This document shows, one piece after another, positions 25,965 to 47,151 of a DNA stretch of 52,126 nt (positions are counted from its first letter, which is position 1; each line of letters starts with the position of its first letter). Source of the DNA: Thermosyntropha sp. (GTDB lineage: Bacteria > Bacillota > Syntrophomonadia > Syntrophomonadales > Syntrophomonadaceae); assembly GCF_017656155.1 (NCBI RefSeq), contig NZ_JACDOH010000012.1:1-52126 (forward strand), given 5' to 3'. The notes below the pieces were generated by a model, which saw only the letters and a program-made list of their open reading frames with translations, ran no database searches and was not told where the DNA came from. The position numbers were made by a program, and so were the translations under genes.

Positions 25965-25993
25965 AGGGTTCTAACAAAGGTTATGATGAGATA

Positions 25994-26512
25994 ATGAAAA
26001 GGGTTAAAGTTATAGTAAGCCTATTAATAGTGTTTTTTATTGTTGTGTTCTTGTTTTATCCTCTGCCTTCGCTGGTTTTGTCAAAATCTGATGGAAAAAT
26101 AGTCTTGATTTTGCCACTTATTAAAGGGAAAAATTTTTCTTATGAATATTTACATTCGGTACAGAAGACCCCGGTGCAGGAACATTTTGTTCAGGCACCG
26201 GGAAATATAATTTTGTTGACTTCGACTTCTTATCAATCCTTTGGGGTAGGTTTACCTTTTCTATCCGGTGAAGGGGATTTTGCTTTGAAAAATGGGATTT
26301 TCGTTCTTAAAAATATGAACCGGAAGTATGAGAAAATTACCTGGGCCTTTATGCCTGTAGCTAGGCAGGCTCTGATATATAAGGACAAAAGATATCCATT
26401 TTATAAATATTGCCGTCCGGGAGAGCTTTTAGAGCTTGAAATTCAGAACTTGAATGGAGCTAGCATACTGGTGAAATCGTGGCAGGCAAGAAAGGGGGTA
26501 TTTGATAAATAA
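25994..26512 (+). CDS. DUF1850 protein of a TAXI-TRAP operon
   Basis: This 172-residue protein has one N-terminal membrane helix (VIVSLLIVFFIVVFLFYPL) followed by a small extracytoplasmic domain with FSYEYLHSVQKTPVQE, FGVGLPF and VARQALIYKDKRYPFY. The HSV.KTPV segment is the DUF1850 mark. These genes are found between TAXI binding proteins and TRAP permeases, so a role as an accessory subunit is inferred from context. Its stop codon overlaps the next start (TAATG), implying translational coupling. Confidence 0.82.
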   Translation: MKRVKVIVSLLIVFFIVVFLFYPLPSLVLSKSDGKIVLILPLIKGKNFSYEYLHSVQKTPVQEHFVQAPGNIILLTSTSYQSFGVGLPFLSGEGDFALKNGIFVLKNMNRKYEKITWAFMPVARQALIYKDKRYPFYKYCRPGELLELEIQNLNGASILVKSWQARKGVFDK

Positions 26513-28437
26513 TGCACGATTTAAACCATGAAGATATTAAAATTGAAGAGTTTTTGGCTCAATATGACCGGGAATCAGACTTCCGGCGGTATGGTGGTTT
26601 TTTTAAACTGGTAGTAGCAGTTATTGCTGTATGTTTTTCCTTGTTTCATATATATACAGGAATATTTGGAACCTTAGATGCTATTTTGCAGCGTGCAGTA
26701 CATCTTTCTTTTGCTATGGCCCTAGTTTTTTTGCTCTATCCAGGGCGCAAATCCTGGTCAAGGCAGGATTTGCATTTAATTGACGGAATATTAGCGGTTA
26801 TAGCTGCTGCTATTCCGCTTTATATAGTAGTTTTTTATCAGGAACTGGTTTTGCGGGCGGGAATGCCTACTGTGACTGACATAATCGTAGGAGCAATAGG
26901 AATATTGATGGTTTTGGAGGCTGCCCGCCGGGTGGTAGGTTGGCCTATCGTAACCATTGCAGTTCTTTTTTTGCTTTATGCTTATGCCGGTCCCTATATG
27001 CCGGGTGCTTTTGCCCACAGGGGAGTAAATCTAGATCAGATAGTAAGTCATCTTTATTTTACAACAGAAGGTGTTTTTGGTATTCCTCTGGGGGTTTCTT
27101 CAACATTTATTTTTCTTTTTATACTATTTGCTGCTTACCTTGAAAAAACTGGTTTGGGTCAGTTTTTTATTGATCTTGCCAATGCTTTAGCTGGATGGGC
27201 TAGAGGGGGACCGGCAAAAGTGGCGGTAATTTCAAGCGGGCTTATGGGGACGATTTCCGGAAGCTCAGTAGCAAATGTGGCGGGAACAGGCAGTCTTACC
27301 ATTCCTATGATGAAAAAGTTGGGTTATAAGCCTGAATTTGCTGGAGCAGTAGAAGCAGCTGCTTCTACTGGAGGGCAGCTTATGCCTCCTATTATGGGGG
27401 CTGCTGCTTTCCTCATGGCTGAATTTGTTGGAGTTCCTTATATTGAAGTAGTAAAAGCGGCTATTGTCCCAGCTCTACTTTATTTCACAGGCATAATGCT
27501 GGGAGTTCATCTTGAAGCACGAAAAAACGGAATGGAAGGTATTCCAAGGTCAGAGTTGCCTAAGGCGGGTGAGGTTCTAAAGGAGCGGGGACATTTGGCT
27601 ATTCCTCTTATAGCCATTATTTATTTGCTGGTAAAGGGCTTTTCCCCTATGAAAGCAGCCCTCTGGGCGATAGCTTTAAGCATTGTAGCAGCTATGCTGA
27701 AGCCTTCAACCCGTTTGTCGTTAAGGGATATTGTTAAAGGTCTGGAAGATGGAGCAAGGTCTGCTTTGGGAGTAATAATAGCCTGTGCGGCGGCAGGGAT
27801 AATTATAGGGGTAGTAACTAAAACAGGTTTAGGACTGAAATTAGGGTCGGCTCTTATCGATCTGGCTAATGGTAACCTCTTGCTTACTTTGATTTTTACT
27901 ATGATAACTTCTATTATTTTAGGAATGGGTGTTCCTACAACGGCTAACTATGTTATTACCTCAACTATTGCTGCTCCTGCTGTTATAGGTTTAGGAGTTC
28001 CACTCCTGGCTGCCCATATGTTTGCTTTTTATTTTGGCATAATTGCAGATGTAACTCCCCCAGTAGCCTTGGCTGCTTTTGCAGGATCAGGAATTGCCCG
28101 CAGCAATCCTATGAAAACAGGAATAAATGCTGCCAAATTGGCTATAGCTGCTTTTATTGTTCCTTATATATTTGTTATGTCGCCGGTTCTGCTTATGATA
28201 AATGCACATCTTTCTCAGGTGCTTTTGGCCGTTTTAACTGCTGTGGTAGGAATGATAGGTGTAGCAGCAGCCGTTTCAGGCTATTTTGTTACCTATGGAC
28301 GTTTTTATGATCGTATTATCTTTTTTATAGGAGGGCTTTTGATGATAAGTCCTGGTCTCAGAACGGACATTTTGGGGCTGGGATTTATGCTTCTTGCGTA
28401 TGCAATTCAAAAAAACAGACAGGCTAAAATCAAATAA
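26512..28437 (+). CDS. TRAP transporter permease, fused small and large subunits
   Basis: This 641-residue protein has an N-terminal small-subunit region of four membrane segments (to about residue 130). A DctM-type large subunit follows, with GTISGSSVANVAGTGSLTIP, AAASTGGQLMPPIMGAAAF and GMGVPTTANYVITS, the two gating hairpin regions of the large subunit. It imports a solute handed over by the TAXI protein, driven by a sodium or proton gradient. It starts at the ATG overlapping the DUF1850 stop. A terminator follows 9 bp after its stop. Confidence 0.93.
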   Translation: MHDLNHEDIKIEEFLAQYDRESDFRRYGGFFKLVVAVIAVCFSLFHIYTGIFGTLDAILQRAVHLSFAMALVFLLYPGRKSWSRQDLHLIDGILAVIAAAIPLYIVVFYQELVLRAGMPTVTDIIVGAIGILMVLEAARRVVGWPIVTIAVLFLLYAYAGPYMPGAFAHRGVNLDQIVSHLYFTTEGVFGIPLGVSSTFIFLFILFAAYLEKTGLGQFFIDLANALAGWARGGPAKVAVISSGLMGTISGSSVANVAGTGSLTIPMMKKLGYKPEFAGAVEAAASTGGQLMPPIMGAAAFLMAEFVGVPYIEVVKAAIVPALLYFTGIMLGVHLEARKNGMEGIPRSELPKAGEVLKERGHLAIPLIAIIYLLVKGFSPMKAALWAIALSIVAAMLKPSTRLSLRDIVKGLEDGARSALGVIIACAAAGIIIGVVTKTGLGLKLGSALIDLANGNLLLTLIFTMITSIILGMGVPTTANYVITSTIAAPAVIGLGVPLLAAHMFAFYFGIIADVTPPVALAAFAGSGIARSNPMKTGINAAKLAIAAFIVPYIFVMSPVLLMINAHLSQVLLAVLTAVVGMIGVAAAVSGYFVTYGRFYDRIIFFIGGLLMISPGLRTDILGLGFMLLAYAIQKNRQAKIK

Positions 28438-28586: not shown

Positions 28587-30374
28587 ATGCCGAAAAAGAG
28601 GCAGGAGATAAGTGAAGAATATAAATGGAAGCTTTCTGATATGTATCCGGATGAAAAGTCCTGGTATGATGATTATTCTAAAGTAGAAAAGCTTTTAGGG
28701 GAAATAGAAAAGTATAAAGGAAGATTAGGTAATTCTGCTGAGGAACTTTTATTAGCTATAAAGCTTAGTGAAGAAGTCGAAAGGCTTGCCGAAAAACTCT
28801 ATGTATATGCCAGAATGAAACGGGATGAAGATAATACGCTTTCATCGTCTCAGGTTTTATGTGACAGAGCTGAAATGCTAGGGGTTAAAGTTAACAGCCA
28901 GCTTGCTTTTATGGTTCCTGAAATGATGAATATTGCTGATGAAACTTTAGATAGGTTTTTAGAAGAACCAGAATTGACCCTTTACCGGCATTATTTTGAT
29001 GAGCTGAGGCGCAGGAAAAAACATATTTTATCTGAAAACGAAGAAAAGATTTTGGCTATGAGTGCTGACATCGGGTTTGCTGCTTCTAATATATTTTCCA
29101 TGCTTAATAATGCGGATATAAAATTCCCGATTATAAAGGATGAAAAGGGACAGGAAATTGAGCTTACCAAAGGCAATTTTGGGCGTTTTATGGAAAGTCA
29201 TGACCGGGAAGTCCGAAAAGCAGCATTTAAAGGTCTTTACAGCTCTTATGAAAAACTAAAGAATACCCTGGCGGCAACTTTGAATGCTTCTGTGAAAAGA
29301 GATATTTTTTATGCCCGGGTGCGTGGATATTCTTCTGCTTTAGAGGCTTCCCTGGATCAGGATAATGTAAAAGTTGAAGTTTATGAAAATCTTATTGCTG
29401 CTGTACACAGACATATAGATGCACTGCATAAGTATATTGCATTGCGCAAAAAGATTTTGGGATTAGACGAAATCCATATGTACGATCTTTATGTCCCATT
29501 GGTTAAGGAATATAAAAAGGAATATGAATATAATAAAGCTAAAGAACTGGTTTTGGAAGGATTGAGCATTTTAGGCGGTGATTATATTAATCAGCTTAAG
29601 AAAGGCATGGAAAGCAGCTGGATAGATGTTTATGAAAATGAAGGGAAAACCGGAGGAGCTTATTCCTGGGGCTGTTATGACAGCCATCCCTATGTTCTCC
29701 TGAATTATGACAACAGGCTGGATGATGTGTTTACTTTGGCTCATGAGATGGGACATGCCCTGCATAGCTATTACTCCAACACTTCCCAACCTTATGTTTA
29801 CAGCCAGTATCCCATACTCCTGGCTGAAGTAGCCTCTACGGTGAATGAATCGCTTCTTCTTGATTATATGCTTAAAAATACTAATGATGAAAAGGAAAAG
29901 CTATACCTCATAAATCATTACCTGGAAGAATTCAGAGGCACGGTTTACCGTCAGACTATGTTTGCTGAATTTGAAAAGATAGTGCATGAAAAGGTGGAAA
30001 AAGGAGAACCGGTAACTGTTGATGAATTCTGCAGGATTTACCGGGATCTTAACCGCTTCTATTATGGTGATGAAGTAGTCCTGGATGATGAGATAGCTCT
30101 GGAATGGGCAAGAATTCCTCATTTTTATACAGCCTTTTATGTATATAAATATGCCACCGGTTTTTCGGCGGCAACAGCTATAAAACAGCATATAACCCAG
30201 GAAGGAGAAGAAGCGGTAAAAAGGTATATGGAATTTTTACAGGCCGGGGGTTCAGATTATCCGCTTAATATACTTAAAAGGGCTGGGGTTGATTTGACCA
30301 CCTCTGCTCCGGTAGAAGAAGCCTTAAAATATTTTGCTTCCCTGGTAGATAAGATGGAATCGATTCTCAAATAA
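28587..30374 (+). CDS. pepF: Oligoendopeptidase F (M3 metallopeptidase)
   Basis: This 595-residue protein has the PepF layout: an N-terminal helical lobe (from EEYKWKLSDMYPDEKSWYDD), then the zinc site TLAHEMGHALHSYY near residue 385 (HExxH with E..H) and the third ligand in LAEVASTVNES. It cleaves oligopeptides of roughly 7-17 residues in the cytoplasm. Length is standard for the family. ATG follows AAGGAGGAG. It is monocistronic and followed by a long inverted repeat that probably terminates it. Confidence 0.94.
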   Translation: MPKKRQEISEEYKWKLSDMYPDEKSWYDDYSKVEKLLGEIEKYKGRLGNSAEELLLAIKLSEEVERLAEKLYVYARMKRDEDNTLSSSQVLCDRAEMLGVKVNSQLAFMVPEMMNIADETLDRFLEEPELTLYRHYFDELRRRKKHILSENEEKILAMSADIGFAASNIFSMLNNADIKFPIIKDEKGQEIELTKGNFGRFMESHDREVRKAAFKGLYSSYEKLKNTLAATLNASVKRDIFYARVRGYSSALEASLDQDNVKVEVYENLIAAVHRHIDALHKYIALRKKILGLDEIHMYDLYVPLVKEYKKEYEYNKAKELVLEGLSILGGDYINQLKKGMESSWIDVYENEGKTGGAYSWGCYDSHPYVLLNYDNRLDDVFTLAHEMGHALHSYYSNTSQPYVYSQYPILLAEVASTVNESLLLDYMLKNTNDEKEKLYLINHYLEEFRGTVYRQTMFAEFEKIVHEKVEKGEPVTVDEFCRIYRDLNRFYYGDEVVLDDEIALEWARIPHFYTAFYVYKYATGFSAATAIKQHITQEGEEAVKRYMEFLQAGGSDYPLNILKRAGVDLTTSAPVEEALKYFASLVDKMESILK

Positions 30375-31365: not shown

Positions 31366-34300
31366 TTGGCTCATCTCAAGCGGGAGGCGGAATTTGAGGG
31401 AAAATTAGAAGAGGTATATCCTTTTTTGGAAGACTTTAAGCATTATGATCTGGTTATAGGTATCCCTTTTGGGGTTAAAGATAGTAATCTGTTAGATCTG
31501 GTTAAGGATGTGGATCGGCTTCTTTCAAAGTGGATGGGAAGAAGATACCTTATTGTGCTGGTAGGCGATAGTGAGGCAGAAGAGGTTTTAAGTGTTATTA
31601 GGCAGCTTAAGCTTTCTCATCCCCATCTGGGGTGGACTTTGCCCGACCGGGTGAGGGGACGGGGAATGAAGGTGAGGGCTTTGATAGAGATATGCAAATT
31701 TATAGATGCCGATCTTTTGCTTTTGTCTCCTGATATGGCAGTAAGCCGGGAGCAGACGGGGGAACGTTTATGGCTGGACAGGTTTGTTTTGCCTATACAG
31801 AACGATTATGACATGGTTATAGGAGGCTTTAAGGAAGATGTTGTCCGCTATTTATCGGAAGTTTTATTAGTTTCACCTGTTTTGGAAGTTTTTTATGGTT
31901 CTTCTTTTATCAATCCTGTAGGGGGAGTATATGCCATTTCCCATGATTTTGTTGAAGAGCTGGCACATGAGGCTCGATTTTGGGGAGAAAGCATTGCGGG
32001 GGAAGGGATTGATTTCTGGCTTATAACCAGGGCCTTGTGCTGGAACAAGAATGTATGTGAGGTCAGTTTAAAGGCGGCCCCTTTGGCCTCAGGTCTTCTT
32101 TATGGCAGGGAAACGATAAAAGAGCTGGGAAAAACTTTGTTTACTGCTATCAAGAGGGACAGTGCGGTATGGCTTAAAGACAGGCTGGTTATCAAAAAAG
32201 CGGATACGGGTGCAGCAGCAAATGAAGGGGAAAAAACCGCTTTTTTTTCTTCTGAACGGTTGTTCCAGATGCGGGAAGAATTTATAAGGGAATACAGTGA
32301 GCAAAAAGAAAATTTGGGCTCACCCAGTTTTACTTATCCTGCAGAAGTAAGACGTTTGCTCCAGTATGGGGAGGAAATAAATGAAGCTGAGTGGGTTTTT
32401 TTGCTGACAGAATTGATGCTTTTGTATTCTTTTGAAAATGAGAATCTTCATGATGAGATTTTGCGGATTTTTTACGTATTTTATACAGCATGGGCTGCTA
32501 ACTGTCTGAAGAAATGGTTGGGGGAGGGCGAGTTGAGAGTATTAGCAAAAGAGGAAAGGAACGATTTTTTAGCTTACAGGGGACGGGGCTTGGAGCGAAA
32601 GATAGCAGAGGAGTTCAGAAAGGTTAAACCTGATTTTAGCCGGAGATGGTTAGCGCTTAAGGAGCAGCACAAACCTCCGATTGTACCGCTGGGCTACATG
32701 GAATATGTGCCCAATAAACCTATTGTGGTGCCCAAAAAGATAGCCGGGAAAGATGAAGAAATAGTCAACACAGATGAGATTTTTCGCTATTTGAGAAAGG
32801 TTTATGAAGACAGATTTGAAAGATTTGTAACCGAAGGCCTGGGGCTGGCTTCTGGCTCGCCACCCCGGGAGATAATCAATGCTGTAGAGAGTTTTATGAC
32901 TCGGCTGGAGGATCTTCTGGCTGAAATCTTTCCTGGGGAGCTTGATACTGATACCGGGCTTGAACTTTTTATAAACTGGATAATGGATTTTTTCCCCCAG
33001 CAGATGTTTACCATAAATGATGAGCTTTTGCGGGAAATGATTATGCGCTTTCCTCCTTTAAACCTCATGATTCCGTTAGGGTTTTACAAACCGCAGGATT
33101 TGATTGAAAATATGGATGTGCGTAATGCAGTAACTTATGCTAATCTCATTGAGAGCTGGAGTTATACTGATCGGGATTTACTCTGGCTGGTAGATAACCT
33201 AAGGCCGGAAAGTTTTGGGGAAACGCCGGTTAAGCCTTTGGTTTTGAAAGATGAGATTGTGCAAGGAGGAGGCCTTAGCGGGCATAAGATAAGTTATCTT
33301 AACCGCATAACTGCCCGGATAGCGGTGAGAAAGATGCCTGAAGCCAGAGGGGGAAAATACCCGCGTTTAAGATATTGGACCAGTATTCTGCGCAGGCTTG
33401 CTCTGGCTGAAAGTTATGGCGAACTATTCCGCCTTACGGTTATGCAGAGAAAAAACATCGGGGAAAAAATTAAAAATTCTCTTCTTTCCTTAGCCAAGGG
33501 AGAGGATTTCTCGGCCTATAATATTTTTGAAAATCAGCAGCACCGTATATTGGTGAGCAGAATAAGACGGCTGGCGTGTGAATTTAAAGAAAAGGGAGAT
33601 CAGGGAAAGGCCAGACTTTTTGAGCTTATGGCTGATGGATATGGCTTGAGCCAGGTTTTAGAAGATGGAACTTTTTTGAGTTGTACAGCCTGGAGCTGGG
33701 CCAGTTACAGTTTTAAAGGCGGACTTAAGATTCCTACTCCTTTTACTACCAGTGTGGAAAGCCGCTGGTTTAATCATGATTTTTTAGAATGTTTGTACCG
33801 CAATTTAGGTTATGATCCCCGGGAAATCATGGAGTTTGTCTTCAAACTTATTCAGGAAGGGAGAAGCAGCCATAATTTGCTGGATACTCTGCTTCCTACC
33901 AGGCCCAAGGATGTAACGGTGGTGGTACAGGAGATTACTAATGAACCCAGCAAATATCTTAAACGTTGTGCCCAAAATCCCATTTTAGAACCAGTGAAAG
34001 AACATAAATGGGAATCGAAATATGTGTTAAATCCCGGGGCTTTGCGTATAAAAGATAAGGTTTACCTTTTTTATCGGGCGGTAGGGGAAGATAATATTTC
34101 CCATATAGGATTAGCTATCACTGATGGATATAGAGTTTTGGAAAGACTTCCTAAGCCTATTTTTTCACCGGCTATTCCCGAAGAAAAAATGGGCTGTGAA
34201 GATCCGCGGGTCGTGGTGATAGGAGATAAAATTTTTATGCTTTATACAGCTTATGACGGCAATATAGCCCAGGTAGCAGCAGCTTCCATAAAGCTTGATG

Positions 34301-34899
34301 ATTTTATTAAGGGCAGGTATACCGCTTGGAAACGGGAAGGGCTGGCTTTTACCAATATATGGGATAAAGATGCTATTATATGGCCGGAGAAGATTAATGG
34401 GAAGTATGTTATTTACCACCGCATAGAGCCGAGTATATGGGTAACTTATACCGACAAGTTGAAATTTCCTATAAAAGAAAAACATGCTATAATTGTCGGC
34501 CCCAGGCCAGGGCGCATGTGGGATTCTTTAAAAATAGGGGCTGGAGCTCAGCCTTTAAAAACCAAATACGGATGGCTTCTTATCTATCATGGTGTAGATT
34601 ATAACTATATATACCGATTGGGGGTTCTGTTGGTAGACAGGGATAATCCGCAGAAGGTTATATATCGTTCACTCAATCCTATATTGGAACCGGAAAAAGA
34701 TTATGAGGTAGGCTTAAGCGGAGCCTGGGTGCCGAATGTTGTTTTTACCTGTGGGGCAGTACCGGCCGAGGATAAAAAAATTTTGGAAGATGATGATGAA
34801 ATCTTGGTCTATTACGGGGCAGCTGATACGAGTATAGGTATGGCTAGTGCTAAACTATCGGATTTGATACCGAAAGTGTTTAGAAAAAGACGTGTTTAA
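31366..34899 (+). CDS. Giant GT-A glycosyltransferase-GH130 phosphorylase fusion
   Basis: This 1177-residue cytoplasmic protein has three parts. Residues about 30-250 resemble a GT-A nucleotide-sugar transferase related to GT2/GT81: YDLVIGIPFGVKD, RGRGMKVRAL, ADLLLLSPDMA, and INPVGGVYAIS before GEGIDFWL. The usual metal-binding DxD of GT81-like enzymes reads SPD here. Residues about 260-860 are mainly helical and unrecognised. Residues about 865-1170 are a GH130 five-bladed propeller, with LNPGALRIKDKVYLFYRA, the acid motif GCEDPRVVV (Asp near 946) and LLIYHGVD. GH130 enzymes phosphorolyse beta-mannosides to mannose-1-phosphate. TTG at 31366 is chosen for its GAAGGAGG site. A role in making and degrading a mannan is inferred. 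Confidence 0.85.
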   Translation: MAHLKREAEFEGKLEEVYPFLEDFKHYDLVIGIPFGVKDSNLLDLVKDVDRLLSKWMGRRYLIVLVGDSEAEEVLSVIRQLKLSHPHLGWTLPDRVRGRGMKVRALIEICKFIDADLLLLSPDMAVSREQTGERLWLDRFVLPIQNDYDMVIGGFKEDVVRYLSEVLLVSPVLEVFYGSSFINPVGGVYAISHDFVEELAHEARFWGESIAGEGIDFWLITRALCWNKNVCEVSLKAAPLASGLLYGRETIKELGKTLFTAIKRDSAVWLKDRLVIKKADTGAAANEGEKTAFFSSERLFQMREEFIREYSEQKENLGSPSFTYPAEVRRLLQYGEEINEAEWVFLLTELMLLYSFENENLHDEILRIFYVFYTAWAANCLKKWLGEGELRVLAKEERNDFLAYRGRGLERKIAEEFRKVKPDFSRRWLALKEQHKPPIVPLGYMEYVPNKPIVVPKKIAGKDEEIVNTDEIFRYLRKVYEDRFERFVTEGLGLASGSPPREIINAVESFMTRLEDLLAEIFPGELDTDTGLELFINWIMDFFPQQMFTINDELLREMIMRFPPLNLMIPLGFYKPQDLIENMDVRNAVTYANLIESWSYTDRDLLWLVDNLRPESFGETPVKPLVLKDEIVQGGGLSGHKISYLNRITARIAVRKMPEARGGKYPRLRYWTSILRRLALAESYGELFRLTVMQRKNIGEKIKNSLLSLAKGEDFSAYNIFENQQHRILVSRIRRLACEFKEKGDQGKARLFELMADGYGLSQVLEDGTFLSCTAWSWASYSFKGGLKIPTPFTTSVESRWFNHDFLECLYRNLGYDPREIMEFVFKLIQEGRSSHNLLDTLLPTRPKDVTVVVQEITNEPSKYLKRCAQNPILEPVKEHKWESKYVLNPGALRIKDKVYLFYRAVGEDNISHIGLAITDGYRVLERLPKPIFSPAIPEEKMGCEDPRVVVIGDKIFMLYTAYDGNIAQVAAASIKLDDFIKGRYTAWKREGLAFTNIWDKDAIIWPEKINGKYVIYHRIEPSIWVTYTDKLKFPIKEKHAIIVGPRPGRMWDSLKIGAGAQPLKTKYGWLLIYHGVDYNYIYRLGVLLVDRDNPQKVIYRSLNPILEPEKDYEVGLSGAWVPNVVFTCGAVPAEDKKILEDDDEILVYYGAADTSIGMASAKLSDLIPKVFRKRRV

Positions 34900-35190: not shown

Positions 35191-35847
35191 ATGCGTATGA
35201 AAGTTAATTGTGTTTTATTGTTAATGATGGTCTTTTTACTTGGAACCTGTTCTATAGCTAATGCAGTTGGATTTCCTGAGTATAATAATTCAGATTTATC
35301 TAATGTAAATGAATTTTCCTCTTTGGATTTTTTTGATGAAGAAAAAATAAAAGATAAGTTACAAGATATTGTACTCTATCCTAATGAAACTCCCCAAACT
35401 ATTGTCTTTAATGATGGTAGTAGTATAACTTTTACTTTTTATAGAAGTGTTGAAAAAGTCAATAGTGGTAGTTTAAATATTCATAGTGATAATGGTATCA
35501 TACCTCAACCACTTTCTGTATTGAGATATAGTGATTCGATTAGTGCTGAATACAGATCTGAACAAGGAAGTGGTCCTGTAGTACTTGTTTATACAATACA
35601 TGTAACTTGGGATGGACATGAAACTTTAAATCGTGCTACCTTGATTAGTCACCATGATTCATTAGAGAAAAAAATTCCTATAATAGCACGAGCTAAAGGA
35701 ACTAGGGAAGTAAAGACAAATGGAGAGTATATTTTAGTTAGAGGTGGATGGCAGGCTAGTATTCCTGGATTAGGTGGATATGTTTCTCATACATATGAGT
35801 TTCGTGGAAATCCTGATGGATCGGCCTATATGAATATGATAAGCTAG
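35191..35847 (+). CDS. Secreted protein of unknown function (paralogue 1)
   Basis: This 218-residue protein has a clear signal peptide (CVLLLMMVFLLGTCSIANA). No family was recognised. The mature part is rich in Asn, Ser and beta-strand-like segments: TIVFNDGSSITFTFY in the first half, and VTWDGHETLNRATLI then YVSHTYEFRGNPDGSAYMNMIS at the end. It shares the FxDGS block and the final EFxGxPDGS block with the next gene, so the two are paralogues. No cysteine remains after the signal. ATG follows GGGGGGAT. Codon use is visibly more AT-rich than in flanking genes, hinting at acquisition by transfer. Confidence 0.75.
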   Translation: MRMKVNCVLLLMMVFLLGTCSIANAVGFPEYNNSDLSNVNEFSSLDFFDEEKIKDKLQDIVLYPNETPQTIVFNDGSSITFTFYRSVEKVNSGSLNIHSDNGIIPQPLSVLRYSDSISAEYRSEQGSGPVVLVYTIHVTWDGHETLNRATLISHHDSLEKKIPIIARAKGTREVKTNGEYILVRGGWQASIPGLGGYVSHTYEFRGNPDGSAYMNMIS

Positions 35848-35865: not shown

Positions 35866-36438
35866 ATGAAAAAGATTTTTTATGTTACAGTTTTTTTATT
35901 TTTTATACTTGGAATGACTGGTAATGCATTTGCGACTGATAGCTTATTAAATCAAAATCCAGATGCGTTAAATCCGAAGGTAGTTTATGAAAAACTTAAT
36001 GGAATAAGGCTTACTTCTGAAAATCCTACTAAAACAATTATATTTGATGATGGAAGTAAGGCTGTAATAGAGGTTGTTGACTTAGCAACTAACAATAATG
36101 AAGATGGTAGATATATAAAGGCAGTTAGTTATACAGCTTCAATTGGGCCATTTGATACTAAATATACGATTGGTGCTGATTGGGAAGTAGTTGGCTTTGA
36201 TAAGGTACGTTTAAATGATCATTGGGATGATGTTGTAGCAGATATAAATGTTAAAGTAACTAGATTTCCTACTAAAGATGGTAATACATATGGTCATAAT
36301 GTTAAAGTTTGGGGTTCTGTTAGTTATATGATTAAAAAACCATATCCTTTTGGACAACTACGCCATTTTGAATTTAAGGGTTATCCAGATGGTTCATGTA
36401 CAATAAGTCCTATAAGTAGTTATCCTGGTTGCCCATAG
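35866..36438 (+). CDS. Secreted protein of unknown function (paralogue 2)
   Basis: This 190-residue protein has a signal peptide (KKIFYVTVFLFFILGMTGNAFA). It shares with its upstream neighbour the blocks TIIFDDGSKAV, YTIGADW, HWDD and RHFEFKGYPDGSCTISPIS, in the same order and spacing. Two cysteines occur near the C-terminus. No family was recognised. It lies 18 bp downstream of the first copy behind GGGGAGGAG, so the pair is one operon. The DNA is AT-rich with A/T-ending codons. The tandem duplication and export suggest a surface or secreted role; nothing in the sequence shows an enzyme site. Confidence 0.75.
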   Translation: MKKIFYVTVFLFFILGMTGNAFATDSLLNQNPDALNPKVVYEKLNGIRLTSENPTKTIIFDDGSKAVIEVVDLATNNNEDGRYIKAVSYTASIGPFDTKYTIGADWEVVGFDKVRLNDHWDDVVADINVKVTRFPTKDGNTYGHNVKVWGSVSYMIKKPYPFGQLRHFEFKGYPDGSCTISPISSYPGCP

Positions 36439-36847: not shown

Positions 36848-37534
36848 ATGTATGGTGCAGCAAAAAGGTATTTTACCTGGATTCAGGGTAATTTCGTCAA
36901 TTTTGTGCTGGTAATTATTACTCACTTTTTTTTATCCTTTATACCGATAATAACTGGTTTTTACGATTCAGTCATGGTCGACTTTGTTTTTTGGGGTATT
37001 TACTGGGTTTTTGAGTTATTTTGGGTGATTATTTTTTTAAATCTTTTAAATGCAGATTCTGTGCAAATTATAAACTGCCAGAGGATATTTTATGACAGCA
37101 TAAAAATTTTGCCTAAAATGCTTTTGGGGGTCATTGTATTACTCAGTATCGTTGCAGCTTTTATGTTGGCTCTTTTGGAAATTATCAACCTTGATCCTAT
37201 CAGGCAGATGTTTTTGCTGGCGGTATGTATTTTTATTATTTTTTTTCTGTTTTCAATGGTTTTGTATGTTCCCATCATAATTATTAATGAAGATAGCGGG
37301 GTTGTTGAGGCATTGAAGATCAGCCTTAAATTGGCATGGAGTAAGAATAATATACTGCTTCTTTGTTTGGGCAGCCTGGTCGGGATTTTATCAAAGATTA
37401 TATCAGTTGGTTTTGTTTTTTCCAAATCGTATGTGTTATTTACAGTGAGCGATGGAATTATTACTGCATTTCTCTTAAGTTATATATTTGCAGTTCTTTA
37501 TTATAATTATTTGAGGTCGGACTGTGGGAGCTAG
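36848..37534 (+). CDS. Polytopic membrane protein of unknown function
   Basis: This 228-residue protein has six hydrophobic segments (among them FVNFVLVIITHFFLSFIPII, LLGVIVLLSIVAAFMLALL and FLLAVCIFIIFFLFSMVLYV). A charged block, NEDSGVVEALKISLKLAWSKN, lies between segments 4 and 5. The VVEALKISLKLA pattern recalls membrane domains found in DUF975- or GPDPase-type integral proteins, but no family is certain. ATG follows AGAGAGGAG. It is preceded by a possible structured leader and followed by an intron remnant. Confidence 0.7.
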   Translation: MYGAAKRYFTWIQGNFVNFVLVIITHFFLSFIPIITGFYDSVMVDFVFWGIYWVFELFWVIIFLNLLNADSVQIINCQRIFYDSIKILPKMLLGVIVLLSIVAAFMLALLEIINLDPIRQMFLLAVCIFIIFFLFSMVLYVPIIIINEDSGVVEALKISLKLAWSKNNILLLCLGSLVGILSKIISVGFVFSKSYVLFTVSDGIITAFLLSYIFAVLYYNYLRSDCGS

Positions 37535-39672: not shown

Positions 39673-41838
39673 TTATGATAAAGCTTTGTTGGAGCGGGAA
39701 AGGCGCATGCCGTTCAAGGTTACAGCCAGAGCGGTTCCCACGTCAGCCGCAACTGCCAGCCACATGGTGAGCATGCCGGGTATTATGAGAAGAAAGATTA
39801 ATATTTTTATGAGTACGGAAGCAAAGATATTTTGCTTTATTATTTTTACTGTCCTGCGGCTTAAGTTTATAATTTGAGGCAATGTTAACAAGTTGTTGGA
39901 CATAAGGACTATATCTGCTGTTTCCATAGCTATGTCAGCATTTTGGCTTCGCATGGCTATACCTATATCGGCAGAGGATAAGGCAGGGGCGTCATTTATT
40001 CCGTCTCCCACCATAGCCAGCTTGTATTTAGTTTTTATTTCTTTTACCGTATTTTCTTTATCTTCGGGTAGGAGACCGGCTTTAAAATGGGATAAGCCGA
40101 TTTTGTCTGCAATGCTGGCTGCCACTTTGTCATTATCTCCTGTCAGCATAATTATTTCTTCAATTCCTATTTTCTTAATTCCGGCTATAGCTTTTTTAGT
40201 TTCATCCCGCAAGACATCGGCTATACCGATTAACCCCAATATTTTTTGGGAGGAAGCCAGAACGACTACAGTTTGTCCTTCAGTTGCCAATTTCTCTATA
40301 TCTTCTTTGACTTCCCTTAAATCAATACCATTTTGTTCTATAAAAAGAGGGCTTCCTATATAGTACCTGTTCCCTTCTATAACAGCTGAAGCCCCTCTTC
40401 CCGGAACATTTTCAAAGTCATATGCCTGAAGAGGTGTTGTATTTCCAGATGCGGCATATTTTGTTACCGCTTGAGCCAACGGGTGTTCTGAATTTTTTTC
40501 TATGGCACAGGCCAGGCTCAAAAAGGTTTTTTCGTCACCGGATTTGAGAATGATTTTGTTGACTTCAGGTTTTCCTTTAGTAAGCGTTCCTGTCTTGTCA
40601 AAGGCAACAGCCTGAATACGTCCTAACTCTTCCAGATAGCTGCCTCCTTTTATGAGCACTCCTTTACGGGAAGCATTGCCTAAGGCAGAGACGATAGCTA
40701 CCGGGGTAGATATTACCAGGGCACAGGGACAGGCTATAAGGAGCAGGGCTAATCCCTGATAAATCCATTTATGCGCTTCCTGCCCCAGCAATAGAGGAGG
40801 AAGGGATGCTACCAGCAAAGCAATCAGGATAACTGCCGGAGTATAATAGGCAGCAAACCGGTCTACTGTCTGCTGAGCCGGGGAACGCTTAGCCTGGGAT
40901 TCTTCCAAGAGGTAAATTATTTTTTGCAAAGCAGTATCTTTATATGATTTAGTAGCTTTTATTTTTAAAACCCCGTTGGTGTTTAGGGTGCCGGCAAAAA
41001 CTTCATCTCCTGCTTCCTTATAAACAGGTACTGATTCTCCGGTAATAGGAGACTGGTCAACAGCAGAATTGCCGCTTACTACCATGCCGTCGACCGGTAT
41101 AGACTGACCGGGGCGCACCAGGACTATGTCGCCTATCGTAATCTGGTTTAACGGTTTTAATACTTCACCTTTATCGGTTATAACTAGTGCTTCTTTGGGC
41201 GTTAAGGCCATGAGATTTTTTATGGAATTTCTGGTTTTATCAAAGGTATAAGCCTGCAGGAAATTGCCCAGTGAATAAAGAAATACCACCATTATTCCTT
41301 CGGCTGTCTCACCTATGAAGACAGCACCGATAACTGCGATTATCATAAGTGCATTTATGTCAAGCTGCTTTAGTTTTATTAAGGTATTAAAGGCATTGCG
41401 CGCTGGCATAGCAATGCCGCCGATTATGCCGGCAATAAATAATAAATCTACCAGATGTGGATTTCCCCTCGCAAGCCAGATAATCCCTCCGACCAAAAGG
41501 CAAATGCCTGATATGATGAAAGAAATACCAAGAGGGTTGGTAAAAAGCAGATTTAAGAAGGTATTTTTTTCTTTTTCGTAAACTTTATCTTCTTCGGCTT
41601 CTATGGCTTCATAGCCTAAAAAACGGGTTAGCTTTATGATTTCGTCTTTATTTAGTTCTCCTTCCGCAAACTCCACTTTAAGTTTACCGCTGGCAAAATT
41701 TAATGAAGCGCTTATGACTCCGGGCATTTCCTGTACTGCTTTTTCCAGTTTGGCTGCACAGTTAGGACAGTCAAGTCCGGTAATATAAAGGCTGGTTTCA
41801 ACTGTTTCTGGGTTGTAAGCTAAGGCGTTTGACTTCAT
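39673..41838 (-). CDS. cadA: Heavy-metal P1B-type ATPase (Zn/Cd/Pb exporter)
   Basis: This 721-residue protein has one N-terminal HMA domain with the metal site GLDCPNCAAK. The pump core follows: PVDGMVVSGNSAVDQSPITGES (actuator), the CPx motif IACPCALVISTP in the sixth membrane helix, phosphorylation site FDKTGTLTKGKPE, SEHPLAQA, and MVGDGINDAPAL. The CPC motif with these residues is typical of Zn/Cd/Pb-exporting ATPases. It acts in the cytoplasmic membrane. It lies 24 bp after a CadC-type repressor, in one operon on the minus strand. Confidence 0.93.
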   Translation of the reverse strand: MKSNALAYNPETVETSLYITGLDCPNCAAKLEKAVQEMPGVISASLNFASGKLKVEFAEGELNKDEIIKLTRFLGYEAIEAEEDKVYEKEKNTFLNLLFTNPLGISFIISGICLLVGGIIWLARGNPHLVDLLFIAGIIGGIAMPARNAFNTLIKLKQLDINALMIIAVIGAVFIGETAEGIMVVFLYSLGNFLQAYTFDKTRNSIKNLMALTPKEALVITDKGEVLKPLNQITIGDIVLVRPGQSIPVDGMVVSGNSAVDQSPITGESVPVYKEAGDEVFAGTLNTNGVLKIKATKSYKDTALQKIIYLLEESQAKRSPAQQTVDRFAAYYTPAVILIALLVASLPPLLLGQEAHKWIYQGLALLLIACPCALVISTPVAIVSALGNASRKGVLIKGGSYLEELGRIQAVAFDKTGTLTKGKPEVNKIILKSGDEKTFLSLACAIEKNSEHPLAQAVTKYAASGNTTPLQAYDFENVPGRGASAVIEGNRYYIGSPLFIEQNGIDLREVKEDIEKLATEGQTVVVLASSQKILGLIGIADVLRDETKKAIAGIKKIGIEEIIMLTGDNDKVAASIADKIGLSHFKAGLLPEDKENTVKEIKTKYKLAMVGDGINDAPALSSADIGIAMRSQNADIAMETADIVLMSNNLLTLPQIINLSRRTVKIIKQNIFASVLIKILIFLLIIPGMLTMWLAVAADVGTALAVTLNGMRLSRSNKALS

Positions 41839-41862
41839 TTTTAATCCTCCCCTGTAAAAACT

Positions 41863-42246: not shown

Positions 42247-42261
42247 TCTACACCTCCATTT

Positions 42262-42289
42262 AAACACTTGAACAATTATTCATATGTTT
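42262..42289. promoter_or_regulatory. CadC/SmtB-type operator
   Basis: AAACACTTGAACAA (42262-42275) faces TTATTCATATGTTT (42276-42289). The two halves are reverse complements at 11 of 14 positions, with the TGAA core typical of SmtB/CadC sites (TGAANANNTNTTCA type). It lies 15 bp before the cadC start. Confidence 0.7.
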
Positions 42290-42337: not shown

Positions 42338-43357
42338 TTAAGAAGTCTTTTCCATATCAGCCTGCTGTTTGATGAAACTTAACATAAGGGTATCGGTTAA
42401 GAGGAGGGATATTACCGCTTCAGCTCCTTGATTCAAGTTTACTCCCTCAGGGGTAAGGGCATCGTAGCATCCGCCGGTTTTTGGGTTATACAGGGAAAGT
42501 TGGTTTATGTTATATCCCCGGAACCATCTGTGGGCAAGGATAGCCAGTTCCAGGTATTCGCTTCCTCCGCTTAAACTGTAGGCTTCAAAACAGGCGAAGG
42601 CGGTAGAAGCGGCATCTACCGGCTGTTGGTCGTAAAGGGCCGGTTTTTTTCCTTGAAAATACCATCCGCGGTTTCCTATGATATTTAAATAAGATTTTTT
42701 AAAAAGCATACTGTTTAGAAAGCTGAGTGAGTCGTGGGCAATTTTTAAAGCTTTTTTATGCTCTTTTATTCCGTAATATGCCCATAAGGCTTGCGGTAGA
42801 ATACCGTTGCAGTAGGTGAGATAATTTTCAAACCATAAAAATTTGCGGGTATGATTAGCTTGATATAATGAAATTAAATAATCTGCTAGTTTATCTCTGA
42901 TACTTGAGTATTGTGCCGATATTTTTTCATTATCTATTTTGCATAAACCTAATAAAGTATAAGCAATAGCCCGGGGAGAACGGAAATGAATTGAAGAAGG
43001 CAAGGCGTCTTTTAACATTTTTTCGCACATTTTTTTTATATCGGTAAAAGGGCTGTTTATACCCAGACTGCAGGCAAGCAGAGCCCGTCCTACACTGTCT
43101 TCGGAATCAAAAGAAGCATAAAATTTTCCGTCCAGTTCAAAATTTGACCAGCTTTTATCAGCCCTCCTGGCTTTGAAAAGCCAGGAGGCATATTTATATG
43201 CCAAATCATAGCCTTCTTCCATATTTAAAGCTATAATAAGAGCCCGGGCATTGTCATCTAATGTATATCCGCTTAAAGGATCGGGAGAATCAAGCTTTGA
43301 GAACTGGAGTATGCCGTTTTCATCTGTAAGATTTAGAAAATGCCTATAATCCAGCAT
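42338..43357 (-). CDS. (alpha/alpha)6-barrel glycan-active protein of unknown reaction
   Basis: This 339-residue protein is all helical with repeated hairpins of the (alpha/alpha)6 glycosidase/epimerase class. YTLDDNARALIIALNM near residue 32 resembles a motif seen in proteins encoded next to family 4 glycosyltransferases. DSEDSVGRALLAC, PQALWAYYG, YDQQPVDAASTAFACFEAY and GCYDAL follow. The invariant acidic pairs could be catalytic. It starts inside the upstream GT4 gene (14-bp overlap), so the two products are made together. A glycoside hydrolase, lyase or epimerase acting on the same glycan is possible; the exact reaction is unknown. Confidence 0.65.
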   Translation of the reverse strand: MLDYRHFLNLTDENGILQFSKLDSPDPLSGYTLDDNARALIIALNMEEGYDLAYKYASWLFKARRADKSWSNFELDGKFYASFDSEDSVGRALLACSLGINSPFTDIKKMCEKMLKDALPSSIHFRSPRAIAYTLLGLCKIDNEKISAQYSSIRDKLADYLISLYQANHTRKFLWFENYLTYCNGILPQALWAYYGIKEHKKALKIAHDSLSFLNSMLFKKSYLNIIGNRGWYFQGKKPALYDQQPVDAASTAFACFEAYSLSGGSEYLELAILAHRWFRGYNINQLSLYNPKTGGCYDALTPEGVNLNQGAEAVISLLLTDTLMLSFIKQQADMEKTS

Positions 43358-44513
43358 AATTGATTTTAGCCTCTCTTTTTTCTTTTTTAAGGATGTTGTT
43401 TATAAAAGATGTATATTCTCTGCCTATGTTAGGCCATATCCAGTTTTTACCTAGAGCATATGCGTTTTGCTGCAGAGTTTCTTTTAGCTTGCCGTCGCCT
43501 AAAATTTTTTTAATGAGAGTTGCTATTTCTCCAGGGTCAGCTTCTGCAGCTAAAAGCCCCCGATTATTTTTTAATACTTCAACTGCATAAGTATAAGAAG
43601 TAGAAACAATGGCCCTTCCACAGCCAATGGCAAAGGTAAGGGTGCCGCTTACCGCCTGGTCTTTATTAGGGTAAGGGCTCAGGTAAATATCGGTGAGATA
43701 AAGGTATTCGCCCAGTTCTTCGTCACTTAAAAATTTATTTACAAACTGCACCTTATTCTCTAAATTTAGCTGAACGATAAGATTTTCCAGCATTTCACGG
43801 TAATTTTCCCCTTCGACTTTTTTAAGCATAGGGTGAGTTTGTCCCAGGATGAGGTATTTGGTGTCGGGATATTCCCGGACAACTTCAGCCATGGCTTTTA
43901 TGCCCAGTTCTAATCCTTTGCCCGGGCCTATAAGGCCGAAGGTGCTTATTATTTCATATCCGGTAAGATTGTATTTTGCTTTTAAAACCTGGCTGTCTTC
44001 TTTTTTAAAAGGCGGCACTCCATGACCTATAACTCTTATTTTATTTTTAGGGATGTGATACAACCTGTTTAAAAATTCGGCCGATTTTTGGGTCATACAT
44101 ACTATTCCTGATGCCTTTGTTCCCAAATTTTGCAGAATTTTAAGCTGCTTTGGCTGAGGTTTAGGTAAAACTGTATGAGTTATTAAAATATAAGGTTTAT
44201 TAAGCAACCGGGTAAACTCCAATATATACTCTCCGCTTTCTCCTCCAAATATCCCGTATTCATGCTGAATAATTACCAGTTCAAGATCTGGAGAAGTGTT
44301 TACTAGAAGGGCAGCTTGACGGTAATCAGCTTTTTCCTCCTGGTTTATGTTAAAAATAACTTCATTTCCATAATTATATTTATAGCTATTGTCAGATACA
44401 GCAATTATTTTTACATTTTGTTTATTCAGCTCCAGGCTCTTTTTTAAATCCATGGAAAAAGTAGCAATCCCACATTGTTTTGGCGGGAAAGTGCCTAAGT
44501 TTACTACTGACAA
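43344..44513 (-). CDS. GT4-family glycosyltransferase
   Basis: This 389-residue GT-B enzyme opens with VVNLGTFPPKQCGIATFSMD, the N-terminal Rossmann start seen in GT4 proteins. It continues with VIIQHEYGIFGGESGEY, ISTFGLIGPGKGLELGIKAM at the domain junction, and DIYLSPYPNKDQAVSGTL with the E-x7-E-like donor site region (AIVSTSYTYAVEVLKNNRG). The donor is likely GDP-mannose because the next genes upstream make it; this is inference. TTG at 44513 is used, with AGGAGG nine bases before. It overlaps the downstream barrel gene by 14 bp. Confidence 0.85.
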   Translation of the reverse strand: MSVVNLGTFPPKQCGIATFSMDLKKSLELNKQNVKIIAVSDNSYKYNYGNEVIFNINQEEKADYRQAALLVNTSPDLELVIIQHEYGIFGGESGEYILEFTRLLNKPYILITHTVLPKPQPKQLKILQNLGTKASGIVCMTQKSAEFLNRLYHIPKNKIRVIGHGVPPFKKEDSQVLKAKYNLTGYEIISTFGLIGPGKGLELGIKAMAEVVREYPDTKYLILGQTHPMLKKVEGENYREMLENLIVQLNLENKVQFVNKFLSDEELGEYLYLTDIYLSPYPNKDQAVSGTLTFAIGCGRAIVSTSYTYAVEVLKNNRGLLAAEADPGEIATLIKKILGDGKLKETLQQNAYALGKNWIWPNIGREYTSFINNILKKEKREAKINYAGL

Positions 44514-44598
44514 AGTATGCGTCCTCCTCTTTTATTTTTTATCTATATTTTTCCATATAAATTACCATATTATACTGATTAGTTATTAGAATAAAATC

Positions 44599-45996
44599 TT
44601 AATTGACATTTTCTAAAAAAAAGAAAATTTCTTCTTTTATTTTTTCTAGATTTTCTTCTGAATCTGCTTCACAGCGCACTATGAGTTCAGGCCCGGTATT
44701 AGAAGCCCTTATTAATCCCCATCCAAAGGAGAATATGACGCGGACTCCATCAATATCGACAGTTTTATATTTTTTTTTAAAATGTTTTCTTGCTTTTTCA
44801 ACGATTTCCCATTTTTTTTCATCAATGCTTTTTATTCTTATTTCAGGAGTAGCGTGATATTTGGGGACGTCGGATAACATTTGGCTTACGGTTTCGGTTT
44901 TATGGGATACCAGTTCGATAAAGCGGGCACCTGCATAGACTGCATCATCGAAACCATAGTAATTATCTGCAAAAAACATATGTCCTGACATCTCACCGGT
45001 AAATACAGCTCCAATTTCTTTCATTTTGGCTTTAATCAAAGAATGTCCGGTTTTATACATGATTGGTTTTCCGCCTAAACGATTTATTTCATCTATAAGG
45101 CTTTGCGAACATTTTACTTCTATGATAGCCGGAGTGCCGGGATAGCGAGGGAGTATATCCCGCCAGAAAAGAATCATTAACATATCTCCCCATAAAAGTT
45201 CTCCTCTATCATCGACTATTCCGATACGGTCGCCATCGCCGTCGATTCCTATGCCAAAATCGGCTCCGATTTCTTTGACCTTCAGTGCTAAGTCTTGCAT
45301 GTTTTTGGGGTCTACTGGGTCAGGATGATGGTTGGGAAAATCAGGATCGGATTTGCAGTAGAGTTCAATAACTTCACATCCTAATTGGCGGTAAATTTCG
45401 GGGGCAAATAAAGAAGCAGTGCCATTGCCGCAATCTAATGCTATCTTAAGTTTTCTAGGGCCAAGTTTGATCTTATTTTGTATCATTGAGGAATATTCCG
45501 GGAAAATATCTATTTTTTTTATCGAACCTTTTTGGGGGCTTAAAAATTCTTTTTTTTCTGCCAGTTTTCTTATTTCCTGAATTTGTTCGCCATATATGGT
45601 AGACTCCCCGAACCACAGTTTTAAACCGTTGTATTCAGGAGGATTATGGCTGGCGGTAATCATTATTCCTGCTTTAATGTCAAGATGCCTGGCAGCAAAA
45701 TAAAACATGGGGGTTATTACCAGACCCAAATCGATTATGTTAAATCCAGAATTTAAAAGCGCATTAACTGCTATTTTGTGCAGAGCAGGGGATGATTTTC
45801 GATTATCGTGTCCTATAACTATAGTTTTTTCTCCCCGGGTATGAGAGTATAAAGCAAATGCGCGAATAATGTTTTCAAATATTTCGTCGGTAATTTCCTG
45901 TCCCATTATACCGCGAATGTCGTACTGCCTGAATATGTTTTTAATGGGAATCTCCTCCTTGACGATTTTGCTTGCTGGAAATTTAAAGCAGATCAT
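44599..45996 (-). CDS. manB: Phosphomannomutase/phosphoglucomutase
   Basis: This protein of about 450-465 residues belongs to the alpha-D-phosphohexomutase family. IFRQYDIRGIMGQEITDE opens it, and TASHNPPEYNGLKLW holds the phosphoserine. The metal loop GIGIDGDGDRIGIVDDRG and sugar loop TGEMSGHMFFAD follow, and ASNTGPELIVRCEAD binds phosphate. It interconverts mannose-6-phosphate and mannose-1-phosphate (or glucose). ATG at 45996 overlaps the manC stop by 14 bp, but its ribosome site is poor. AAGGAGGAG inside the gene points to an ATT at 45945, just before the conserved IFRQYDIRG; both starts are possible. Confidence 0.9.
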   Translation of the reverse strand: MICFKFPASKIVKEEIPIKNIFRQYDIRGIMGQEITDEIFENIIRAFALYSHTRGEKTIVIGHDNRKSSPALHKIAVNALLNSGFNIIDLGLVITPMFYFAARHLDIKAGIMITASHNPPEYNGLKLWFGESTIYGEQIQEIRKLAEKKEFLSPQKGSIKKIDIFPEYSSMIQNKIKLGPRKLKIALDCGNGTASLFAPEIYRQLGCEVIELYCKSDPDFPNHHPDPVDPKNMQDLALKVKEIGADFGIGIDGDGDRIGIVDDRGELLWGDMLMILFWRDILPRYPGTPAIIEVKCSQSLIDEINRLGGKPIMYKTGHSLIKAKMKEIGAVFTGEMSGHMFFADNYYGFDDAVYAGARFIELVSHKTETVSQMLSDVPKYHATPEIRIKSIDEKKWEIVEKARKHFKKKYKTVDIDGVRVIFSFGWGLIRASNTGPELIVRCEADSEENLEKIKEEIFFFLENVN

Positions 45997-47029
45997 AGCG
46001 CCCCAGTGTTTGCAGTTTATTGGTAATTTCCCGCATATCTTGGCATTTATCTCGCTTGGTTATGAAGATGATATCCTCGGTTTCTACCACCAGGAGATTA
46101 TCTACTCCGTAAAGAACCAGGGTTTTATCAGTTTGTCTGGTTATGCAGTTTTGTGCATCTAAGAATAAAACATCTGACCCGATGGCAATGTTTGCAAACT
46201 GGTCTTTAGGGTGCAGTTTCTCAAGTGCATTCCAGCTGCCTAAATCACACCAGCCAAAATCGGCAGGGACTACAGCTAAACGGGTTGATTTTTCAGCTAT
46301 CCCGTGGTCAATGCTTATATCCGGAAGTTCTGAGTATGAACTTATGTAAAATTCAGGTCCCTTTATAATCTTTTCGTATATTTCGGGAAGATTAAGGGCG
46401 AATTCTTCTAAAAAGGTTTTAACTTTACCGATATATATTCCGGAATTCCACATGTGGTTTTTGCTTTTTATATAGACTTCAGCTGTTTTAAGATCTGGTT
46501 TCTCATAAAAAGAGCTGACTTGATATACATCGGGGATTTGACCTACTTCCCATTTTGTTTTCTCAATATAGCCGAATCCTGTTTCCGGATGGTCGGGAGT
46601 TATTCCGATAGTAATAAGATAACCTTCTTCAGCAGCCTGATATGCTTTCTTCAAGGTTTCAGAGAATTTATCCAGATGCAACACATGGTGGTCAGCCGGG
46701 AAAATGCCTATTATATCATTTTTGTTTTTGATATGGTAATGAGACAAAATTAAGCCCACTGCTGAAGCGGTATTTTTATTGTCAGGTTCACTTAAAAGTT
46801 CAATATTATCCTCATATGGATGAGCTTTAACTATTTCTACAATCGGTTTTATAAGATTATCATTGGTTAAAATAACGATTTTTTTTGCTCCTGCCGCTTT
46901 TATCCGGTCTATGGTGTGTTCGAGCATAGATTTATTATCAACCAGCTGGCAAAGCTGTTTAGGTCTGAAACTTCTGCTTTCAGGCCAGAGACGCACTCCT
47001 TTGCCGCCTGCTAAGATGACTGAAATCAT
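45983..47029 (-). CDS. manC: Mannose-1-phosphate guanylyltransferase
   Basis: This 348-residue nucleotidyltransferase has VILAGGKGVRLWPESR at the start (nucleotide loop), GIFPADHHV near residue 100, FGYIEKTKW and the FYEKPD signature. PADFGWCDLGSWNAL near residue 260 is typical of ManC-type GDP-mannose pyrophosphorylases. It makes GDP-mannose from mannose-1-phosphate and GTP. It lacks the C-terminal isomerase domain of bifunctional enzymes. ATG at 47029 is chosen because AGGGAGG precedes it; the longer frame from 47071 adds no conserved residues. It is the first gene of the manC-manB-GT4-barrel operon. Confidence 0.9.
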   Translation of the reverse strand: MISVILAGGKGVRLWPESRSFRPKQLCQLVDNKSMLEHTIDRIKAAGAKKIVILTNDNLIKPIVEIVKAHPYEDNIELLSEPDNKNTASAVGLILSHYHIKNKNDIIGIFPADHHVLHLDKFSETLKKAYQAAEEGYLITIGITPDHPETGFGYIEKTKWEVGQIPDVYQVSSFYEKPDLKTAEVYIKSKNHMWNSGIYIGKVKTFLEEFALNLPEIYEKIIKGPEFYISSYSELPDISIDHGIAEKSTRLAVVPADFGWCDLGSWNALEKLHPKDQFANIAIGSDVLFLDAQNCITRQTDKTLVLYGVDNLLVVETEDIIFITKRDKCQDMREITNKLQTLGRYDLL

Positions 47030-47151
47030 ATTTTTTACCTCCCTGAATAGCTGACAAATTATTTTATGCAAAAAGATGCCAGAAATATGACAGACAGGTT
47101 AAACCTTCTTAATATTATTAGCTTTTAGGAAAGAGAATATAACTTAAACAT

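What the first reader, a model, noticed from the sequence alone, without database searches (positions are those of the whole stretch)
31366..34899. Glycosyltransferase and GH130 phosphorylase fused in one 1177-residue protein
One polypeptide appears to carry both a nucleotide-sugar (or phosphosugar) transferase domain and a beta-mannoside phosphorylase domain, joined by about 600 unrecognised residues. The GT-A domain lacks a plain DxD (SPD instead), so it may use another donor or be regulatory. Opposing synthesis and phosphorolysis in one chain suggests a self-contained storage-glycan machine comparable in logic to beta-1,2-mannan (mannogen) cycling.
Basis: partly seen in the sequence, partly recalled or inferred. 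Interest (0 to 1): 0.78.

Follow-up and report, generated by a model that had tools for sequence, protein, structure and literature searches.

The report
Mannan phosphorylase fused to degenerate glycosyltransferase
A heat-loving, fatty-acid-eating bacterium and dozens of its relatives carry an unusually large enzyme in which an apparently active mannan-splitting engine is joined to a worn-down sugar-transferase and an unknown domain; nearby genes make GDP-mannose, hinting at a mannose-based counterpart of glycogen, which most of its close relatives lack.

Summary
The ORF (31366-34899, +, 1177 aa) is real; the same architecture occurs in dozens of genomes. Domains: residues ~18-425, a GT-A glycosyltransferase related to GpgS/MGS; ~426-866, a domain matching nothing in the libraries searched and never found alone in 398 genomes; ~867-1177, GH130, closest to characterised beta-1,2-mannoside phosphorylases. 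Its 'no DxD' remark is right: no fused protein examined keeps DxD and nearly all lack the metal-site His, while four stand-alone homologues keep both. The GH130 residues tested never vary. A conserved cassette lies nearby: GDP-mannose pyrophosphorylase, phosphomannomutase, GT4, a barrel-like protein; in the window, 42338-47071 (-). Similar cassettes carry stand-alone GH130s elsewhere, one about 96% identical to a solved 1,2-beta-oligomannan phosphorylase. Most genomes of this family lack glycogen enzymes. Best reading: an endogenous beta-1,2-mannan cycle in which the fusion is the phosphorylase and its transferase part is mostly regulatory or binding. The mannan logic is supported; 'synthesis and breakdown in one self-contained chain' is not. 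New variant of a known kind; nothing was assayed and both AlphaFold runs failed.

The parts
31366..34899 (+). fusion gene, 1177 aa: degenerate glycosyltransferase + unknown domain + GH130 phosphorylase
31417..32640 (+). residues ~18-425: GT-A glycosyltransferase domain with its C-terminal helical domain, related to GpgS (GT81) and more distantly MGS (GT78)
   Evidence: A6 vs stand-alone GT L103 hhalign 99.9% E 3.2e-32 over 377 columns; L103 vs GpgS E 5e-10, MGS E 0.01
31726..31734 (+). S121-P122-D123 at the DxD position (DSD in stand-alone homologues)
32641..33963 (+). residues ~426-866: conserved domain of unknown fold, found only inside this fusion
   Evidence: no convincing match in PDB or Pfam; 48 of 398 genomes, never alone
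33964..34896 (+). residues ~867-1177: GH130 domain, beta-1,2-mannoside phosphorylase type
34201..34203 (+). D946, GH130 catalytic acid (invariant)
   Evidence: role from PMC4599007
34366..34368 (+). K1001, likely counterpart of BT3780 Lys199, the beta-1,2 specificity lysine (invariant)
   Evidence: equivalence inferred from alignment and spacing
42338..43357 (-). 339-aa protein without a Pfam family (weak match to PDB 7tem); motif YTLDDNARAL, looks like an (alpha/alpha)6-barrel; fused to the GT4 in two other lineages
43344..44513 (-). GT4 glycosyltransferase (PF00534), cassette member
44599..45996 (-). phosphomannomutase/phosphoglucomutase, cassette member
45983..47071 (-). mannose-1-phosphate guanylyltransferase (GMPP, ManC type without the isomerase domain), cassette member

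Best explanation
The protein is a cytoplasmic GH130 inverting phosphorylase of beta-1,2-linked mannose that carries a large N-terminal extension. The extension is an old GpgS/MGS-like glycosyltransferase whose metal site has decayed, plus a ~440-residue domain of unknown fold. With GMPP, phosphomannomutase, a GT4 glycosyltransferase and a barrel-like protein it runs an internal mannan cycle: F6P -> M6P -> Man-1-P -> GDP-Man -> mannan (GT4, and perhaps reverse phosphorolysis by the GH130 domain itself), and mannan + Pi -> Man-1-P by the GH130 domain. Shown by sequence: the architecture, the conserved GH130 site, the decayed GT metal site, the cassette. Inferred: beta-1,2-mannan as substrate, endogenous origin, a reserve role, and that the degenerate transferase binds nucleotide sugar or glycan to steer the phosphorylase rather than catalyse.
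For: GH130 closest to beta-1,2-mannoside phosphorylases; catalytic Asp, the beta-1,2 Lys position and the basic residues taken as the phosphate site are invariant in every fused sequence that covers them (62-64 sequences). Mean pairwise identity GH130 70%, GT 43%, unknown domain 47%. DxD in 4 of 4 stand-alone homologues and 0 of 63 fused sequences with residues there; the His likewise kept in the stand-alone ones and lost in nearly all fused. Cassette near the fusion: barrel-like protein in 26 of 36 loci, GT4 25, PMM 16, GMPP 15, across eight families, in different gene orders, some tight operons. Comparable cassettes carry stand-alone GH130s from two other GH130 clades; one is about 96% identical to 9fj8. 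Fused GH130s form one clade, 99/99. Family f1: 26 of 28 genomes lack PF00343 and a strong glycogen-synthase match. Own genome: bifunctional glucose/mannose-6-P isomerase-type protein present, gmd below cut-off, one GH130. No stretch hydrophobic enough for a usual membrane helix.
Against: No biochemistry. Four of seven f23 genomes tested have the fusion but no close GT4 homologue, so that GT4 is not essential to whatever the fusion does. GMPP and PMM are near the fusion in fewer than half of the loci. In the window the cassette is 7.4 kb away on the other strand, with a metal ATPase, its regulator and other genes between; in T. lipolytica (G001) the GT4 is on another contig. f2 and f3 genomes have both the fusion and glycogen synthase. 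Absence of DxD does not prove inactivity: some GT-A enzymes need no metal. The phosphate-site residues were named from memory of GH130 structures, checked only by conservation with 7fip and 9fj8.
Confidence: 0.5

Rival explanations
1. The transferase domain is still active without a usual metal site and builds the glycan that the GH130 domain takes apart.
For: GT-A homology over the full domain; many fused proteins keep E-x-D or A-x-D, and L111 keeps EAD and a His; some f23 genomes have the fusion without the GT4.
Against: No fused protein keeps DxD; the window's own family has S-A-N/S-P-D; the GID aspartate also varies in others (GIN, GIT); in L034 the GT domain has eroded to 24% identity to its closest relatives while GH130 stays at 71%.
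Confidence: 0.2
2. The cassette makes a mannosylated surface polymer or glycolipid, and the GH130 fusion trims or recycles precursors in the cytoplasm.
For: GMPP + GT4 is a common start for surface polysaccharides (general knowledge); no polymer is identified here.
Against: No flippase, polymerase or polysaccharide exporter was recognised among the recurrent neighbours, though only the most recurrent clusters were looked at; phosphorylases return Man-1-P, which suits an internal reserve.
Confidence: 0.18
3. Salvage of imported beta-1,2-mannooligosaccharides for GDP-mannose, as proposed for Thermoanaerobacter.
For: Same reaction family and partly the same genes (PMC4264767).
Against: No sugar ABC importer or secreted mannanase was recognised as recurrent beside the fusion; the TRAP-TAXI system upstream in the window is kept only in a few close relatives and that class usually carries acids.
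Confidence: 0.07
4. Compatible-solute metabolism: the ancestor of the transferase made glucosyl- or mannosylglycerate, and the fusion handles a mannosyl solute.
For: Closest known transferases are GpgS and MGS.
Against: The transferase site is decayed; GH130 similarity is to oligomannan enzymes.
Confidence: 0.05

Closest known systems
Teth514_1788/1789, Thermoanaerobacter beta-1,2-mannoside phosphorylases (GH130; PMC4264767)
   Same: GH130 sequence class; clustered with a mannose-1-phosphate guanylyltransferase and a GT4
   Different: stand-alone ~300-aa enzymes with an ABC importer and a GH5; no transferase or unknown domain
Leishmania GT108 mannogen enzymes (dual transferase-phosphorylases; described in PMC8950772)
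   Same: beta-1,2-mannan logic, GH130-like fold
   Different: one GH130-like domain does both reactions; here a second, GT-A domain is attached and looks decayed; mannogen itself not shown here
GpgS (glucosyl-3-phosphoglycerate synthase, GT81) and MGS (mannosylglycerate synthase, GT78)
   Same: fold family of residues 18-425, reached through the stand-alone homologue L103
   Different: DxD and His lost; fused to two further domains
Bacterial glycogen cycle (GlgC, GlgA, GlgP)
   Same: nucleotide-sugar maker, synthase and phosphorylase, as a logic
   Different: mannose instead of glucose, unrelated enzymes; analogy only

Membership tests
GH130 | significant match to the GH130 profile | tested here: met
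   PF04041 E 1.7e-52, above cut-off
GH130 | invariant catalytic Asp | tested here: met
   D946 in all 63 sequences covering it
GH130 phosphorylase (not hydrolase) | three basic phosphate-binding residues instead of the Glu pair | tested here: inconclusive
   R1019, K1056, H1075 invariant and shared with 7fip and 9fj8, except that 9fj8 has Arg at the K1056 position; their structural equivalence rests on memory, and no hydrolase was aligned at these positions
beta-1,2-mannoside phosphorylase | Lys equivalent to BT3780 Lys199 | tested here: inconclusive
   K1001 invariant; equivalence from alignment and spacing only
NCBIfam beta-1,2-mannobiose phosphorylase (NF052550) | score above the equivalog cut-off of 450 bits | tested here: not met
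   259 bits: related, not filed as that equivalog
GH130 phosphorylase | phosphate-dependent release of alpha-Man-1-P | not testable with these tools
   needs an enzyme assay
GT81/GT78-type glycosyltransferase | GT-A fold homology over the domain | tested here: met
   by sequence only, structure prediction failed
GT81/GT78-type glycosyltransferase | DxD and metal-binding His | tested here: not met
   SPD and no His in the window; 0 of 63 fused sequences with DxD. Not filed as an active member
mannogen system | intracellular beta-1,2-mannan | not testable with these tools
   needs carbohydrate analysis
GT108 | sequence membership in GT108 and GDP-Man transferase activity | not tested
   no GT108 sequence compared

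The most novel reading that the evidence does not exclude
A bacterial counterpart of mannogen: syntrophic and other anaerobic Firmicutes, many without glycogen enzymes, keep a beta-1,2-mannan reserve whose phosphorylase carries a dead transferase as a built-in sensor or glycan-binding regulator, plus a new ~440-residue domain.
Probability: 0.3. Interest if true: 0.82.

Novelty: new variant of a known kind. Interest (0 to 1): 0.6.

Why it matters
Beta-1,2-mannan reserves are known from Leishmania and related protozoa. No paper found in the library searched describes such a reserve in bacteria or this fusion. If right, it gives a reserve carbohydrate to fatty-acid-oxidising syntrophs that mostly lack glycogen genes, adds a case of a decayed enzyme kept as part of another, and names a conserved domain with no known fold. 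Pure strains and separable domains make it directly testable.

Tried and rejected
AlphaFold2 on the full protein and on the unknown domain, two sequences each: mean pLDDT 32 and 35, unusable, so no fold search was run. Viral contigs for relatives: none. Plasmids for the transferase domain or for MGS: none. Weak PDB hits of the middle region to I-CreI and a sialidase (E 0.07-0.6) taken as chance. I first called the 339-aa neighbour a second GT4, because single-linkage clustering joined it to the GT4 through fused proteins; corrected. The link between glycogen genes and erosion of the fusion (G008, G014) looked attractive, but the two are sister sequences: one event, so not used as evidence. Riboswitch or other known RNA in front of the fusion: none. 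Literature searches for a GT-GH130 fusion or for mannan in Syntrophomonas gave nothing relevant.

Full report
What is there. The ORF 31366-34899 (+) encodes 1177 residues and starts at a TTG behind GAAGGAGGT. The window belongs to a genome whose nearest named relative here is Thermosyntropha lipolytica, 71% identical over the whole protein. The whole architecture recurs: 43 of 61 genomes searched match the first 861 residues, most of them in full-length frames. In 398 genomes sampled across the phylum the middle domain was found in 48, always within the fusion or in a frame cut short, as by a contig end or frame break. It is one conserved protein family, not an accident of this genome.

C-terminal domain. 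Residues ~867-1177 are GH130 (Pfam E 1.7e-52), nearest to the solved beta-1,2-mannobiose phosphorylase 7fip and 1,2-beta-oligomannan phosphorylase 9fj8. It falls below the strict NCBIfam equivalog cut-off for beta-1,2-mannobiose phosphorylase (259 of 450 bits). Thirteen positions, including the catalytic Asp (D946) and K1001, the likely counterpart of the lysine that Cuskin et al. tie to beta-1,2 linkages (PMC4599007), do not vary in any of the sequences that cover them. The assignment of R1019, K1056 and H1075 to the phosphate site is from memory plus conservation with 7fip and, for two of the three, 9fj8 (Arg in place of K1056).

N-terminal domain. Alone, residues 18-290 give only sub-threshold Pfam hits, but the family profile hits GT2-type structures with E 1e-4. 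The best evidence is a stand-alone 413-aa protein from another family of the phylum (L103:849-2090, -): it aligns with fusion residues 18-420 over 377 columns at 99.9% and E 3e-32, and itself matches GpgS structures at 5e-10 and MGS at 0.01. So the transferase includes a helical domain up to about residue 425, and the 'unrecognised' stretch shrinks to ~440 residues.

Decay of the transferase. The four stand-alone homologues have D-S-D, the following His and G-V-D. Of 63 fused sequences with residues there, none has D-x-D. Most have E-A-D or A-A-D; the window's family has mainly S-A-N and variants, the window S-P-D. The His is gone in nearly all, but L111, an early branch, keeps E-A-D and a His. 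The Asp of the G-I-D motif varies too. Identity is lowest in the N-terminal part (mean pairwise: GT 43%, its helical domain 26%, unknown domain 47%, GH130 70%). In one relative, L034, the GT domain is eroded to 24% identity to its closest relatives while GH130 keeps 71%. This fits a fused, once intact transferase that lost catalysis stepwise. It does not prove that the domain is inactive.

Neighbourhood. Of 36 loci around fusion genes (window not counted), 26 have the barrel-like protein, 25 a GT4, 16 a phosphomannomutase, 15 a GMPP. The association holds in eight families with different orders and strands. Some are tight: GT4 - barrel-like protein - fusion with ~15-bp spacing before the fusion (L074, L080), GMPP-PMM-fusion with overlap (L101, L078), and fusion-GMPP-(GT4+barrel in one 813-aa protein)-PMM on one strand (L085). 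In the window the four genes lie at 42338-47071 on the minus strand. I did not run a formal chance control; with one or a few GMPP genes in ~2.5 Mb, a 20-kb stretch should contain one in a few per cent of cases at most. The loci are related, so the independent support is the eight families and the changed orders.

The same cassette without the fusion. In three genomes GMPP, GT4 and the barrel-like protein sit beside a stand-alone GH130 (L136, L137, L140). The one in L140 is about 96% identical to 9fj8 over its length (my count from the alignment). L136 and L137 belong to a distant GH130 clade. Three GH130 lineages thus pair with the same cassette. All fused GH130 domains form one clade (99/99), so one fusion event is the simplest history.

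Physiology. The own genome has one GH130, a glucose/mannose-6-phosphate isomerase-type protein above cut-off, no gmd above cut-off and no PF00343 match. In family f1, 26 of 28 genomes lack a glycogen phosphorylase and a strong GlgA-type match (some of these assemblies are incomplete); f2 and f3 do have a glycogen synthase. An internal mannan as reserve is the simplest reading, but no polymer has been seen, and four f23 genomes with the fusion lack a close homologue of the GT4.

Judgement. The mannan logic is well supported by context; the 'two opposing enzymes in one chain' reading is weakened by the decayed metal site. I file the C-terminal domain under GH130 and the whole as a new variant; I do not file the N-terminal domain as an active glycosyltransferase. 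Known precedents for mannogen enzymes and for GH130 clusters are from PMC8950772 and PMC4264767.

Noticed in passing
window 17247-17368 and 17433-17553 (-): Two tandem molybdenum/tungsten cofactor riboswitches (RF01055, 50 and 89 bits).
   Followed up: no
window 24999-28437 (+): TAXI-type TRAP transporter (solute-binding protein, small protein, fused permease), kept in order in T. lipolytica and two other loci just upstream of pepF and the fusion.
   Followed up: partly
window 28587-30374 (+): Oligoendopeptidase F directly upstream of the fusion in the window and in eight other loci of the same family.
   Followed up: partly
window 35191-35847, 35866-36438, 36848-37534 (+): Three ORFs with no convincing family match between the fusion and a MarR regulator; the first begins with a signal-peptide-like stretch.
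   Followed up: no
window 39673-42267 (-): Heavy-metal P-type ATPase and an ArsR-type regulator lie between the fusion and the mannose cassette.
   Followed up: no
L134 and L129: The barrel-like protein family also occurs in longer proteins (820 and 596 aa) close to stand-alone GH130 genes.
   Followed up: partly
L034 (G014), L036 (G008): Fusions on long branches in the only two f1 genomes with glycogen enzymes; the two are sister, so it counts as one event.
   Followed up: partly
L103:849-2090 (-): Stand-alone intact relative of the fused transferase, next to a LacI-type regulator gene and a sugar-binding-like protein gene.
   Followed up: partly
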